Shown here piece by piece: positions 37,121-40,586 of a stretch of DNA of 64,000 bases. Position 1 is the first letter of the stretch. The number at the start of each line of letters is the position of its first letter. The notes under the pieces were generated by a model. It was not told the DNA's origin and searched no databases. It worked only from the letters and a program-made list of their open reading frames with translations. The translations under genes were made by a program, and so were the position numbers. This stretch comes from Enterococcus rotai (lineage in GTDB: Bacteria > Bacillota > Bacilli > Lactobacillales > Enterococcaceae): contig NZ_CP013655.1 in assembly GCF_001465345.1 (NCBI RefSeq), positions 2,863,336 to 2,927,335 of the forward strand, written 5' to 3'.

Positions 37121-37254
37121 TTGATTCAATGAATTCTTCCTAAATATGCTATAATTTAAAAAAAATGTATGGAGTCGTTTTTGAAAATTGACTGTTAATC
37201 CTAAATAAGATACAGTTATTTTATTCAAGTAACAAAATTAGAAGGTGGGGTTTG

Positions 37255-37956
37255 ATGAAAAATATTCGGAATATGGATGTAGAATGGGGATACGAAGGAG
37301 AGCTCGGACCCGAGCATTGGCATACCCTGTGTGATTGGTTTTCAACTGGTGCAAAGTATCCTTACCAATCACCAATTAATTTATCAAAAAACTTAGTCAA
37401 TGGTGTATCAACAAGTAGAGCGATTGATTTTTGTTATAAATCAGAAGAGTTTACAGAAAAAGAATTTAAAAATACATTTCATTTTGTTCCACCAAATACA
37501 GAAAGCTATATCATTTTTGAAGATGAAAAATACTATTTGACTGATATTCATTTTCATACGCCAAGTGAACATACCTTTGATGGCGAACACGCACCATTGG
37601 AATTTCATTTAGTTCATATGAATAATTCTGGTGATAACTTAGTTGTTGGTTGCTTATTTACAATTACAACAGAAGAAAATAAATTTTCAAAAAATAAAAC
37701 AACGCTGAAATGGAAATCAGAAACCCATCAACAATGGTTTGATCCTTCAATTTTTTTACCTGAACAAAAATCACATTTTCATTATTTAGGTTCGTTGACA
37801 ACACCACCGACCAAAGGACCGGTCCATTGGTTTGTATTTGATACGATTCAAAAAATGGATCAAGAGTTCTTTGAACGAATTGATGAAGGGATGTTACCGT
37901 TCAATAATCGCCCTACCCAAGCGTTAAACGGACGAAAAATCTATTTTTCCGAATAA
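37255..37956 (+). CDS. Alpha-type carbonic anhydrase, apparently cytosolic
   Basis: A 233-residue alpha-carbonic anhydrase. HWHTLCDWF and YQSPINL lie near the N-terminus, zinc histidines in HFHTPSEHTF and EFHLVHMN, and the threonine motif LTTPPTKGPVHW is present. It hydrates CO2 to bicarbonate, which CarA/B in the preceding operon consumes. There is no signal peptide or lipobox, unusual since many bacterial alpha enzymes are exported. ATG 37255 has GAAGGTGG upstream. A LysR gene follows 14 nt later. Confidence 0.9.
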   Translation: MKNIRNMDVEWGYEGELGPEHWHTLCDWFSTGAKYPYQSPINLSKNLVNGVSTSRAIDFCYKSEEFTEKEFKNTFHFVPPNTESYIIFEDEKYYLTDIHFHTPSEHTFDGEHAPLEFHLVHMNNSGDNLVVGCLFTITTEENKFSKNKTTLKWKSETHQQWFDPSIFLPEQKSHFHYLGSLTTPPTKGPVHWFVFDTIQKMDQEFFERIDEGMLPFNNRPTQALNGRKIYFSE

Positions 37957-37970
37957 GATGGAGGTCACCT

Positions 37971-38861
37971 ATGAATATTCAACAGATGAAATATGTTGTA
38001 GCAGTTGCTAATAACGGCAGCTTTCGAGAAGCAGCGAAAAAGCTCTTTATCACGCAGCCAAGTCTTTCTAATGGGATTCGGGAATTAGAGGAAGAGATCG
38101 GGGTGACGTTGTTTATTCGTACGAACAAAGGGGCTTCTTTGACGGAAGAGGGACTGACATTCTTAGAACATGCAGAAAAAATATTGACTCAGATGGAAAT
38201 GATTGAAAATCGTTATCAGGAAGTAACTAAAAGCGAACGTTTTTCAATTTCCTCTCAACACTATGATTTTTTAGGCGAAGTAATGGGCAGAGTGATTCAG
38301 CAATTCAAAGATCAGTACAAAAATTTCCGTGTTTTTGAGACAACAACACTAAAAGTCATTGAAGATGTGAAAAGCTATCATAGTGAGCTTGGGATTATTT
38401 ATTTGAATAGCCAAAACCAATCTGGGATTGAGCGATATTTAGAGCAAGCCAATTTAACGTATGATGTGATGGGGAGCTTTAAAACGCACATTTTCCTTGG
38501 AAAAAACCATCCCTTAGCCCAGCAAAAAGAAATCCAACTGGAGCAACTATGCTGCTATCCTCAAGTGCGATTTACCCAAGAAGGCAGCAATTTCGCTTAT
38601 TTTTCAGAGGATTTAATTGAAAATCAGGAGCAAGAAACAGTGATTTATACGAATGATCGTGGAACATTGATGAATTTGCTGGTTGAGACCGACGCTTATG
38701 CCTCTGGTTCTGGTGTGGTAACGGGTTTTACTAAAAAGGAAATACGCTTGGTTCCATTAGCAGAAAGTACCAATAATAAAATCTGTGTTCTTTACCAAAA
38801 AAATAAAACAATCAGCACAATTGGTCAGTATTTTATAAAAGAATTGAAACAATTATTTTGA
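37971..38861 (+). CDS. LysR-family transcriptional regulator
   Basis: A 296-residue regulator. The winged helix (about 1-60) reads MNIQQMKYVVAVANNGSF..., then ITQPSLSNGIRELEEEIG. The effector domain is of the CysB fold. It is co-transcribed with the carbonic anhydrase gene (14-nt gap, GGAGG), so it may respond to CO2/bicarbonate or pH-related metabolism; the resemblance to CysL/CbbR-type regulators is only general. Confidence 0.87.
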   Translation: MNIQQMKYVVAVANNGSFREAAKKLFITQPSLSNGIRELEEEIGVTLFIRTNKGASLTEEGLTFLEHAEKILTQMEMIENRYQEVTKSERFSISSQHYDFLGEVMGRVIQQFKDQYKNFRVFETTTLKVIEDVKSYHSELGIIYLNSQNQSGIERYLEQANLTYDVMGSFKTHIFLGKNHPLAQQKEIQLEQLCCYPQVRFTQEGSNFAYFSEDLIENQEQETVIYTNDRGTLMNLLVETDAYASGSGVVTGFTKKEIRLVPLAESTNNKICVLYQKNKTISTIGQYFIKELKQLF

Positions 38862-38926
38862 AGTGAGTCAGGACTAACTATTTTTTATCGGATTATACTG
38901 CTATCTAACAAAATAGAAAAAAATGT

Positions 38927-38962
38927 AAAAGAGCATCTTGATTTATAGGGTGTTCTTTTTTG
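38927..38962 (+). terminator. Terminator after the LysR gene
   Basis: AAAAGAGCATC / GGTGTTCTTTT stem (11 pairs with G-U) followed by TT and more T residues. Confidence 0.65.
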
Positions 38963-39030
38963 TTATAAATACCATCTATTAAGTCGTTTTTAATTATGGT
39001 GGAATTAAAAAAAGAAGGAGTTGTTTTTTT

Positions 39031-39202
39031 ATGAGAAAATTTTCAATAGGAATGATGGAAAGAAGAGAGAATAAAATTGTTATGGATCCAGGTCATCGGT
39101 AGGTCATTTGAAAAATCTGTGGGAAAAAGTGTACTGCAGCTTACTGATATGAAATCTGCCGTTTCAGGTGCCATATTTACTAGAAGACTATTTTGTAGAT
39201 AA
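39031..39202 (+). pseudogene. Frameshifted small peptide gene, homologous to the next one (RiPP/bacteriocin-precursor-like)
   Basis: GAAGGAG then ATG 39031 opens a frame that stops at 39102 after 23 codons. Skipping one base of the GG at 39091-39092 restores a frame ending at TAA 39202, and the conceptual N-terminus then aligns without gaps to the following gene over its first 26 codons (MRKFSIGMMERR against MRKLSISTIEKK; VIGRSFEK against IIGTPFER). The restored product ends with a double-glycine-like stretch LTDMKSAVSG and a short Cys-containing tail. It appears inactivated unless the base is a sequencing error. Confidence 0.55.
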
Positions 39203-39269
39203 AAATCAAAAGTTAAGAATTTTAGCCAAATATCTGGATTTCATATAGAACGAAGAATGGAGTGAATAG

Positions 39270-39461
39270 ATGAGGAAGTTATCAATTTCAACAATAGAAA
39301 AAAAGCGGAATAATATAATGTTAGATGATATTATCGGTACACCATTTGAGCGGACACCTGACGATGAGCTAATGGGATGCTCAATTAACATTCCCAATCC
39401 GGTAACCGCAACAACTATACTTACAGTCGTTACTATTACAATGATCAAGCGTTGTAAATAA
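39270..39461 (+). CDS. Small Thr/Cys peptide with leader-like N-terminus, possible RiPP (class II lanthipeptide-like) precursor
   Basis: A 63-residue peptide. The charged N-terminal half carries DDIIGTPFERTPDDELMG (about 19-36), which resembles leaders of class II lantibiotics. The C-terminal 28 residues start with Cys, contain six Thr and one Ser in a hydrophobic run, and end with RCK. GGAGTGA precedes the ATG. It is the intact partner of the frameshifted upstream copy. No modification, transport or immunity gene is in the window, so it would be an orphan. A small membrane peptide or toxin is an alternative. Confidence 0.55.
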   Translation: MRKLSISTIEKKRNNIMLDDIIGTPFERTPDDELMGCSINIPNPVTATTILTVVTITMIKRCK

Positions 39462-39478
39462 TGCTCAGCTAGATTATA

Positions 39479-39530
39479 GCACCAAACAATCAGTTCTTTG
39501 AACAGCTGATTGTTTGGTGCTAATTTTTTA
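39479..39530. terminator. Strong bidirectional terminator
   Basis: A 15-bp perfect stem GCACCAAACAATCAG / CTGATTGTTTGGTGC, with a T-run on the plus side, between the small peptide gene and hisC. Confidence 0.85.
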
Positions 39531-40586
39531 TTCGTGATCATTTATCACGTAATCATGCAGGAGTTGGGAAACTTTTTCCATTTCGACCTGTGTACCAATT
39601 GAAACGCGGAGATAATTATTCAATCGCTCAATTTTTGGAAAGTAGCGAACAAATACGTCTTTTGTTTCTAAATAGTGATAAAGCTCGTTCATATTTAAAT
39701 TCGGATGAGTTAGCAGCACAAAGTTTGTTTTTGAAACTAGGGTAGAAAAGCCAAAATTTGTTATGTTTTTAGAAAACCAGTCTCTAGTTGTACAAATTTT
39801 CTGTGTTATTTCCTTATAATATGCTGAATCTTCAACAGCTGCTACAGCTAATTTTTCAGCTAACATATCAACTGAATAAGGATTAAAGGATGATTTTATA
39901 CTTTCCGCAATTTGTATATAGTCAGGGTTGCCAATGGCATAACCTACCCGTAATCCTGCTAAAGAACTTGATTTTGAGAATGTTTGGATAATGATCAGAT
40001 TAGGGTAACTATCTAGAAGCGTGACAGCAGAGCACCTAGCAAAATCAATATAGGCTTCATCAATGATGACAATCACTTCTGGATTTTCTTTTAATAGATA
40101 CTCGATTTCAGAAAGTGGTTTAAATAAACCTGTAGGTGCATTAGGATTTGCGATGATGATTCCGCCATTTAACTGTTTATAATCATCAATAACTATTTCA
40201 AACTGATCATTTAACGGTAACTCTTTAAATGGAACTTGAAATAAATCAGCCCAAACTTTATAAAAACCATAAGTGATATCTGGAAATAAGAGCGGATCAG
40301 AGCTGTTAAAAAAGGCAAGAAAACAAAAAGCCAAGACCTCATCAGAACCGTTACCAATCAAAAAGTGTTCTGGAGATAATTGATGTTTGGCTCCTAAAGC
40401 GTTTTTCAAAGCAAGATTATCAATGGAGCTATACCGTTTTAATTGTTCCACATCGAAGTCTTTCAACGTATCAGCAACTTTTGGAGCAGGGGGATAAGGA
40501 TTTTCATTTGTGTTCAATTTGATCATAGCTGGATAATTTGGCTGTTCTCCTGGGACATAAGGTGTGATTTTTCTAAGACCTTTCAT
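39528..40586 (-). CDS. hisC: Histidinol-phosphate aminotransferase family protein
   Basis: A 352-residue PLP fold-type I aminotransferase. The N-terminal KLNTNENPYPP is the HisC signature, the PLP lysine lies in FSKSSSLAGLRVGYAIG (about 215-231), and VIIDEAYIDF is the cofactor-aspartate strand. No other his gene is nearby. Orphan HisC enzymes also transaminate aromatic amino acids, so a role in Phe/Tyr metabolism is possible. It is monocistronic and divergent from the second aminotransferase. Confidence 0.88.
   Translation of the reverse strand: MKGLRKITPYVPGEQPNYPAMIKLNTNENPYPPAPKVADTLKDFDVEQLKRYSSIDNLALKNALGAKHQLSPEHFLIGNGSDEVLAFCFLAFFNSSDPLLFPDITYGFYKVWADLFQVPFKELPLNDQFEIVIDDYKQLNGGIIIANPNAPTGLFKPLSEIEYLLKENPEVIVIIDEAYIDFARCSAVTLLDSYPNLIIIQTFSKSSSLAGLRVGYAIGNPDYIQIAESIKSSFNPYSVDMLAEKLAVAAVEDSAYYKEITQKICTTRDWFSKNITNFGFSTLVSKTNFVLLTHPNLNMNELYHYLETKDVFVRYFPKIERLNNYLRVSIGTQVEMEKVSQLLHDYVINDHE

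What the first reader, a model, noticed from the sequence alone, without database searches (positions are those of the whole stretch)
39031..39461. Tandem homologous small-peptide genes, one frameshifted: possible remnant RiPP or two-peptide bacteriocin locus
The intact 63-residue product and the conceptually repaired upstream product align without gaps over the first 26 codons, then diverge. This is the pattern of leader conservation with core variation. The second has a Thr-rich core with Cys near both ends after ELMG; the first has a double-glycine-like LTDMKSAVSG. Both have good ribosome sites. A one-base insertion at GG 39091-39092 breaks the first. No synthetase or transporter is adjacent.
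Basis: partly seen in the sequence, partly recalled or inferred. Interest (0 to 1): 0.72.

Follow-up and report, generated by a model that had tools for sequence, protein, structure and literature searches.

The report
Stray lanthipeptide precursors, distant maker enzyme
Two small neighbouring Enterococcus genes, one of them broken, look like extra raw peptides for a ring-forming enzyme encoded about a million bases away; that enzyme's own tiny peptide varies in step with a membrane protein beside it, as signal-receptor or toxin-immunity pairs do.

Summary
In detail: a broken gene (39031-39202) and an intact 63-codon gene (39270-39461) share a leader; in relative G007 both are open. The RiPP idea is right, but the synthetase is remote. 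A class II lanthipeptide synthetase (LanM) with its catalytic motifs lies 1.1 Mb away, followed by a 57-aa precursor with the same leader and core WSRIICLP. A profile of LanM-linked precursors alone ranks the intact window gene first (E 7e-7). LanM, precursor and a 110-aa membrane protein (mem110) occur together in 20 of 22 genus genomes (three with one part broken) and are all absent from the other two. Linked cores have 7-8 residues and one Ser/Thr-x3-Cys, so a five-residue ring is predicted, the common Agr pheromone ring size. Core and mem110 vary together, with one exception, and independently of LanM; between sisters G000 and G007 that block alone falls below 0.89 DNA identity. So the window genes are orphan precursors, probably modified in trans as prochlorosins are, and the parent system looks like a typed signal/receptor or toxin/immunity pair. 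No product or function is shown. A lanthionine pheromone sensed by mem110 and an XRE regulator is the boldest reading not excluded.

The parts
39031..39102 (+). First piece of the broken precursor gene: start, MRKFSI leader opening, then frame change and stop
   Evidence: (profile positions 1-19, not significant alone); open in G007
39077..39202 (+). Second piece of the broken precursor gene, in another frame: leader end VIGRSFEK and C-terminal AIFTRRLFCR (Thr-x4-Cys)
   Evidence: G007 counterpart ends VIFTKSPFCR, G001 orphan VVFTKRPICW
39270..39461 (+). Intact 63-aa orphan precursor: leader MRKLSI...DDIIGTPFER, Thr-rich core with Cys 37 and Cys 62, closing Thr-x4-Cys
39011..39020 (+). Shine-Dalgarno-like AAAGAAGGAG before gene 1
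   Evidence: read by eye; no test
39477..39522 (+). Intrinsic-terminator-like hairpin (19 pairs counted, then a T run) after the pair, in front of the end of convergent hisC
   Evidence: 2 terminator-like sites in 38850-39560, 0.2 expected in shuffles

Best explanation
The window pair are orphan precursor genes of a class II lanthipeptide family whose LanM is encoded about 1.1 Mb away next to its own precursor. SHOWN by sequence: shared leader; LanM with its catalytic motifs; co-occurrence of LanM, linked precursor and mem110; core and mem110 varying together. INFERRED: LanM binds the MRKLSI...GxxFE leader in trans, dehydrates Ser/Thr and closes Thr-x4-Cys (orphans) or Ser/Thr-x3-Cys (linked precursor) thioether rings; the leader is cut near the Gly before the core by a protease not encoded at the locus; the parent product acts on a type-matched partner, mem110. 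Gene 1 is decaying; gene 2 may still be made.
For: Leave-out profile E 7.4e-7 and shuffle control. LanM orthologue at 43-100% identity in 20 of 22 genus genomes (19 full length, G003 split), precursor in the same 20, mem110 in the same 20 (broken in G018 and G021), none of the three in G013 and G016. No precursor at E<=0.001 in the 83 family genomes outside the genus. No LanM at E<=1e-120 in the other 375 genomes of the order sample of 395 (two candidates scored a genome at most in the rows shown). TIGR03897 508.8 bits against cut-off 304; CylM alignment E 5e-76; motifs kept in 19 of 19 full-length orthologues. All 20 LanM genes are followed by the precursor. Core-mem110 link: partial r 0.54 given LanM, none of 20,000 permutations as high; limits of the block.
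Against: No product, transcript or enzyme assay. The orphan cores resemble the linked cores only in the closing Ser/Thr-x3/4-Cys, and gene 2's presumed 27-residue core is much longer. The genome has two other LanM genes (L013, L015); the small ORF beside the L013 LanM also carries a GKSFEEL motif, like the GxSFE part of this leader, so that enzyme could also take the orphans, although that ORF was in the set and is not among the matches. The orphan locus occurs in only three related genomes, and no mem110 copy goes with it.
Confidence: 0.68

Rival explanations
1. The parent system is a narrow-spectrum bacteriocin with mem110 as immunity protein; the window genes are spare or decayed bacteriocin precursors.
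For: Toxin and immunity genes often change together (recalled); mem110 is small, with three predicted helices, and encoded beside the precursor; LanM, precursor and mem110 are absent together in G016 and G013.
Against: mem110 is broken in G018 (stop) and G021 (frame change) while LanM and precursor are open there. Linked cores have only 7-8 residues and one ring. mem110-like proteins follow an XRE gene in G265 and G202 with no LanM that I recognise among the ORFs listed.
Confidence: 0.35
2. The parent product is a secreted pheromone: the ring peptide is sensed by mem110, which controls the XRE regulator encoded just upstream of it on the same strand; the types are pherotypes.
For: Five-residue ring predicted in a hydrophobic 7-8-mer; exchange block restricted to core plus mem110; XRE-mem110 pairs in two other genera; invariant charged stretch SKEGKDERG between helices 1 and 2 (59).
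Against: No regulon, no reporter, no shared operator among the upstream regions compared; G016 keeps XRE without mem110; export route unknown.
Confidence: 0.4
3. The orphans are substrates of another LanM of the genome (L013 or L015) and belong with those clusters.
For: A GKSFEEL motif also stands in the small ORF beside the L013 LanM; both loci have a C39 ABC gene that could export the product.
Against: The MRKLSI start and the remaining leader match the linked precursors of the solitary LanM; the L013 and L015 small ORFs were in the searched set and are not among the matches.
Confidence: 0.15
4. The window genes are unrelated short ORFs that resemble lanthipeptide leaders by chance.
For: No Pfam, NCBIfam or PHROGs family matches the intact gene (5, 6, 91).
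Against: Leave-out profile and shuffles; three genomes share the site.
Confidence: 0.03
5. The joint change of core and mem110 is hitch-hiking of neighbouring DNA, without functional contact.
For: The two are adjacent, tail to tail, so one exchange moves both.
Against: In G000/G007 the block stops at the leader and at XRE. mem110 proteins are 2-9% different within a type across species (one exception, G009 with G008 and G020, 0.64-0.65) and up to about 45% different from G000's. In the 22 genus genomes mem110 is found only with LanM.
Confidence: 0.2

Closest known systems
Prochlorosins/SyncA (ProcM, SyncM)
   Same: One LanM, precursors with diverse cores, some scattered over the genome (PMC10783134, abstract and passages)
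   Different: At most three precursor genes found a genome here; leader not compared with the Nif11-type leader; no transporter at the locus; Firmicute
CylM/LicM2-type class II lanthipeptide synthetases
   Same: LanM by sequence with all motifs looked at
   Different: 26-33% identical to the other LanMs that one search found in the genus; no C39 ABC gene beside it
Staphylococcal Agr types (AIP)
   Same: Ring peptide of 7-9 residues and an allelic block covering signal and membrane partner (PMC10482373, passages); five-membered ring as the common size (PMC10301443, section 3.1)
   Different: Predicted thioether made by LanM instead of a thiolactone; partner is a 110-aa protein without a kinase domain match
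CA_C0082 LanM-like proteins of Clostridium
   Same: LanM-like gene tied to signalling (PMC10301443, abstract and section 3.1)
   Different: Those lack catalytic and zinc residues; here these and a precursor are present
LytTR regulatory systems HdrRM/BrsRM
   Same: Regulator plus transmembrane protein, inducing signal unknown (PMC6193735, passages)
   Different: XRE instead of LytTR regulator; any inhibition untested here

Membership tests
Class II lanthipeptides (LanM systems) | LanM with dehydratase and LanC-like domains and catalytic/zinc residues | tested here: met
   enzyme remote from the window genes
Class II lanthipeptides (LanM systems) | Precursor with a leader and a Ser/Thr + Cys core | tested here: met
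Class II lanthipeptides (LanM systems) | Thioether rings in the product | not testable with these tools
   needs mass spectrometry
Class II lanthipeptides (LanM systems) | C39 transporter/protease (LanT) with the cluster (usual, not defining) | tested here: not met
   none of the five C39 matches of the own genome lies near the LanM, and G017 has LanM and precursor but no C39 match
Prochlorosin-like one-enzyme, many-precursor systems | Remote precursor modified by the single LanM | not testable with these tools
   leader kinship only
Two-peptide lantibiotics | Two precursors acting together | tested here: inconclusive
   pair in G000 and G007, single gene in G001; activity untested
Agr-type pheromone systems | AgrB and AgrC homologues at the locus | not tested
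   no family search was made; I recognise none among the ORFs. The likeness claimed is in logic only

The most novel reading that the evidence does not exclude
Enterococci of this clade use a lanthionine-ringed hepta- or octapeptide as a typed cell-cell signal, read by a 110-aa three-helix membrane protein coupled to an XRE regulator; the window genes are stray precursors through which the same enzyme makes further ring peptides, perhaps effectors or competing signals.
Probability: 0.35. Interest if true: 0.92.

Novelty: new variant of a known kind. Interest (0 to 1): 0.72.

Why it matters
If the reading holds, a fully equipped lanthipeptide enzyme without the usual cluster is a near-fixed trait of one Enterococcus clade (20 of 22 genomes held) and makes very short single-ring peptides; a shorter one, of five residues, is known as an engineered product (PMC9486960, passages). 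Product and membrane partner change together like pherotypes or toxin/immunity types, which gives a short list to test: ring peptide, mem110, XRE. The window genes show how extra precursors arise and decay away from their enzyme, a pattern described for marine cyanobacteria (PMC10783134, passages).

Tried and rejected
Family libraries gave nothing for the precursors (Pfam 5, 32; NCBIfam 6, 33; PHROGs 91). For mem110 Pfam gave only weak matches (47 families over 18 members, best E 0.0003; for the first member all below their cut-offs), and solved structures none better than E 0.13 (90). Rfam at gathering scores: none in the window. No precursor relative confirmed in viral contigs or plasmids. 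The genome-contig scan confirmed only 5 loci against 20 genomes by the profile, so it is insensitive; it gave names (E. termitis, E. crotali, E. ureilyticus, sp. 5H, sp. DIV0212c). One search, run at E<=0.1, also gave two weak matches in G001 (E 0.009 and 0.012), which lie in another LanM cluster (35). Shared operators upstream of lanM, lanA, XRE and the window genes: three shared 10-mers, taken as chance. No promoter stands out before the window pair (3 promoter-like sites in the region, 3.8 expected). The hisC codon count was out of frame and is not used; the frame printed for gene 1 was one base off and is not used. The structure model of mem110 could not be made: structure prediction answered 'busy'. 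Papers naming this enzyme, these cores or mem110: none seen in the listings of searches, nor in the passages found in PMC10134562, PMC9576775, PMC7268733 and PMC12715929; none of these searches could look for the sequences themselves, so this does not prove absence in print.

Rows dropped: alignment A2 leaves out one of the 20 LanM-linked precursors (G010, L025) by oversight; the profile has all 20. A3 leaves out G018 and G021 (mem110 broken); the comparison also leaves out G003 (LanM split), so 17 genomes. One search used 16 genomes (G002, G003, G006, G015 out), with G009 put into the WTK type after I had seen its mem110; by core alone, WTRLICF occurs with two mem110 types. G011 has no values for the two last stretches there. 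The LanM tree has 19 rows; its deeper ingroup forks are weakly supported.

Full report
WHAT IS THERE. The window lies at G000:C1:2863336-2927335 of a 3.75 Mb one-contig genome; relatives named by record title are Enterococcus species. Between a LysR-type regulator (37971-38861) and hisC (39528-40586, opposite strand) stand a broken and an intact small gene. Both begin M-R-K-[LF]-S-I and carry [IV]-G-x-x-F-E-[RK] about 20 codons on. The LysR-hisC spacer could be measured in 18 of 22 genus genomes (in G002, G006, G012 and G016 no close hisC lies within 1.5 kb of LysR). G000 and G007 have the pair, both genes open in G007 (56 and 63 aa); G001 has one gene (56 aa). None of the other 15 has one by the profile: five (G010, G020, G017, G018, G021) hold a different plus-strand ORF of 101-120 aa, and ten have spacers of 103-309 bases.

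THE ENZYME IS ELSEWHERE. A LANC_like search of the own genome gave five matches at four loci. One, G000:C1:1797945-1800818, is a LanM (972 aa as listed, 958 aa from the start used here) with no C39 match near it. It is followed after 81 bases by a 57-aa ORF, MRKLSIEKMETAKDLKKVDAVVGASFERSKNSEDTVDRSETIVANTIGGWSRIICLP, and lies about 1.10 Mb from the window genes. It scores 508.8 bits on TIGR03897 (cut-off 304) and aligns with CylM, 5dzt (E 5e-76). The motifs that align with CylM's phosphotransfer, elimination and zinc residues (assignment recalled) are kept in 19 of 19 full-length orthologues.

FAMILY. Orthologues at 43-100% identity exist in 20 of 22 genus genomes (G003's is split), and each is followed by a leader-family precursor. 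A profile finds precursors in exactly these 20 and in none of the 83 family genomes outside the genus (1 of 17 genera). LanM at E<=1e-120 occurs in 18 of 395 order genomes, all of this genus (the sample seems to hold 20 of the 22 genus genomes). Leave-out test: the profile of the 20 linked precursors alone ranks the intact window gene first of 4,659 segments from the window and three other own loci, E 7.4e-7; the two broken pieces come second and third without significance (0.3, 1.6). With the same profile and set size the G007 gene 1 and the G001 orphan reach 4e-9 and 2e-9, and the best of 8,000 shuffles is 11.8 bits against at least 27.4. Against my reading: the small ORF beside the L013 LanM also holds GKSFEEL, so the GxSFE part of the leader is not unique to this family.

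THE PREDICTED PRODUCTS. Linked cores after the last Gly are WSRIICLP, WSRLVCWP, WSRLICWP, WSRIICLF, WSRFICW, WTKLICF, WTRLICF and WYTVLICF (the cut is my assumption): one Cys and a Ser/Thr with three residues between them, hence one five-residue ring if LanM acts as its kin do. The orphans end FTRRLFC-R (pieces of gene 1), FTKSPFC-R, FTKRPIC-W and TMIKRC-K, Thr-x4-Cys; gene 2 has a longer Thr-rich core with a second Cys. Five-membered rings are called far more common for Agr peptides (PMC10301443, section 3.1 read), and staphylococcal AIPs usually have seven to nine residues (PMC10482373, passages). G017 has LanM and precursor but no Peptidase_C39 match at E<=0.001 in its genome, so a C39 exporter is not required there.

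A PARTNER THAT CHANGES WITH THE CORE. Tail to tail with the linked precursor lies mem110 (110-112 aa), behind an 89-aa XRE regulator on the same strand. It has three hydrophobic stretches, a basic loop between the first and second and a loop with few charges between the second and third in the six sequences examined. mem110 is single copy and present in the same 20 genomes, broken in G018 and G021. In G016 XRE stands between what I read as the same two neighbour genes (queA-like and P-type-ATPase-like; names recalled), without LanM, precursor or mem110. In 17 genomes (136 pairs) all 14 pairs with mem110 identity 0.91 or more share the very same core, although their LanMs are only 0.59-0.79 identical; the sister pair G000/G007, LanM 0.96, has different cores and mem110 0.83 (sisterhood). 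Against the rule, the two other same-core pairs (G009 with G008 and with G020, core WTRLICF) have mem110 at 0.64-0.65; G009's core is one residue from WTKLICF, whose mem110 type it carries (0.86-0.89). Partial correlation of core and mem110 given LanM is 0.54, none of 20,000 permutations as high; of core and LanM given mem110 -0.32. Permutation ignores shared ancestry, so this overstates significance. G000 and G007 DNA is at least 0.89 identical in every 100-base step of 5.9 kb except four (0.63-0.85), from the precursor's 3' end into mem110, and 1.00 again in XRE. Over 120 pairs of 16 genomes (fewer for the last two stretches), the last 30 bases of the precursor average 0.91 within and 0.62 between types and the stretch from there to XRE 0.84 and 0.71, while the LanM 3' end (0.64, 0.62), leader (0.88, 0.85) and XRE (0.96, 0.95) hardly differ (G009 typed after the fact).

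FUNCTION. Such a block is what one sees for signal/receptor types (agr: hypervariable region over agrB, agrD, agrC; PMC10482373, passages) and for toxin/immunity types (recalled). mem110 homologues at E<=1e-4 occur in two more of 395 order genomes: in G265 three in a row, one broken, and in G202 one, each behind an XRE gene and with no LanM that I recognise among the ORFs listed. So the XRE-mem110 pair can exist without a lanthipeptide, and its charged loop is kept. mem110 is broken in G018 and G021 beside open LanM and precursor, which would be costly for an immunity gene; both may be assembly errors. Regulator-plus-transmembrane-inhibitor systems are known (PMC6193735, passages). For immunity speak size, position and joint absence. 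I hold the sensor reading slightly likelier (0.40 against 0.35); neither is shown.

THE WINDOW GENES AGAIN. They have the leader, a terminator-like hairpin and no mem110 of their own. Gene 1 differs from G007 in 8 codons, all amino-acid changing, besides the frame break: a decaying copy. Gene 2 differs in 3 codons, 1 amino-acid changing, too few to prove selection. Most likely they are extra substrates of the remote LanM, as scattered precursors are for ProcM-type enzymes (PMC10783134, abstract and passages); the LanM of L013 is the main rival enzyme.

Noticed in passing
L013, L014, L015 (own genome, G000:C1 near 0.41, 0.75 and 0.90 Mb): Three further lanthipeptide-type loci: LanM (1036 aa) + C39 ABC gene + Ser/Cys-rich small ORF; LanB-like + LanC-like + ABC gene (LanB and ABC names by eye); LanM (917 aa) + C39 ABC gene + GG-type small ORF.
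   Followed up: partly
L084 5552-13120 (relative G001): A cytolysin-like class II cluster in a relative; named only and left alone.
   Followed up: no
L091, L096, L100, L101, L102: The LysR-hisC spacer in five other genomes holds a different 101-120-aa ORF (ESxEDY...), so this spacer seems to take up small genes repeatedly.
   Followed up: no
L192 593-1951 (G265): Three tandem mem110 homologues, one broken, behind an XRE gene in another family of the order.
   Followed up: partly
window 37252-37956: Eukaryotic-type carbonic anhydrase before the LysR gene (PF00194, E 5.6e-28).
   Followed up: no
L021 4378-4458 and counterparts: Promoter-like TTTACT-17-TATAAT in the 81-base gap before the linked precursor, kept in outline in the eight genomes aligned (read by eye): the precursor may have its own promoter apart from lanM.
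   Followed up: partly
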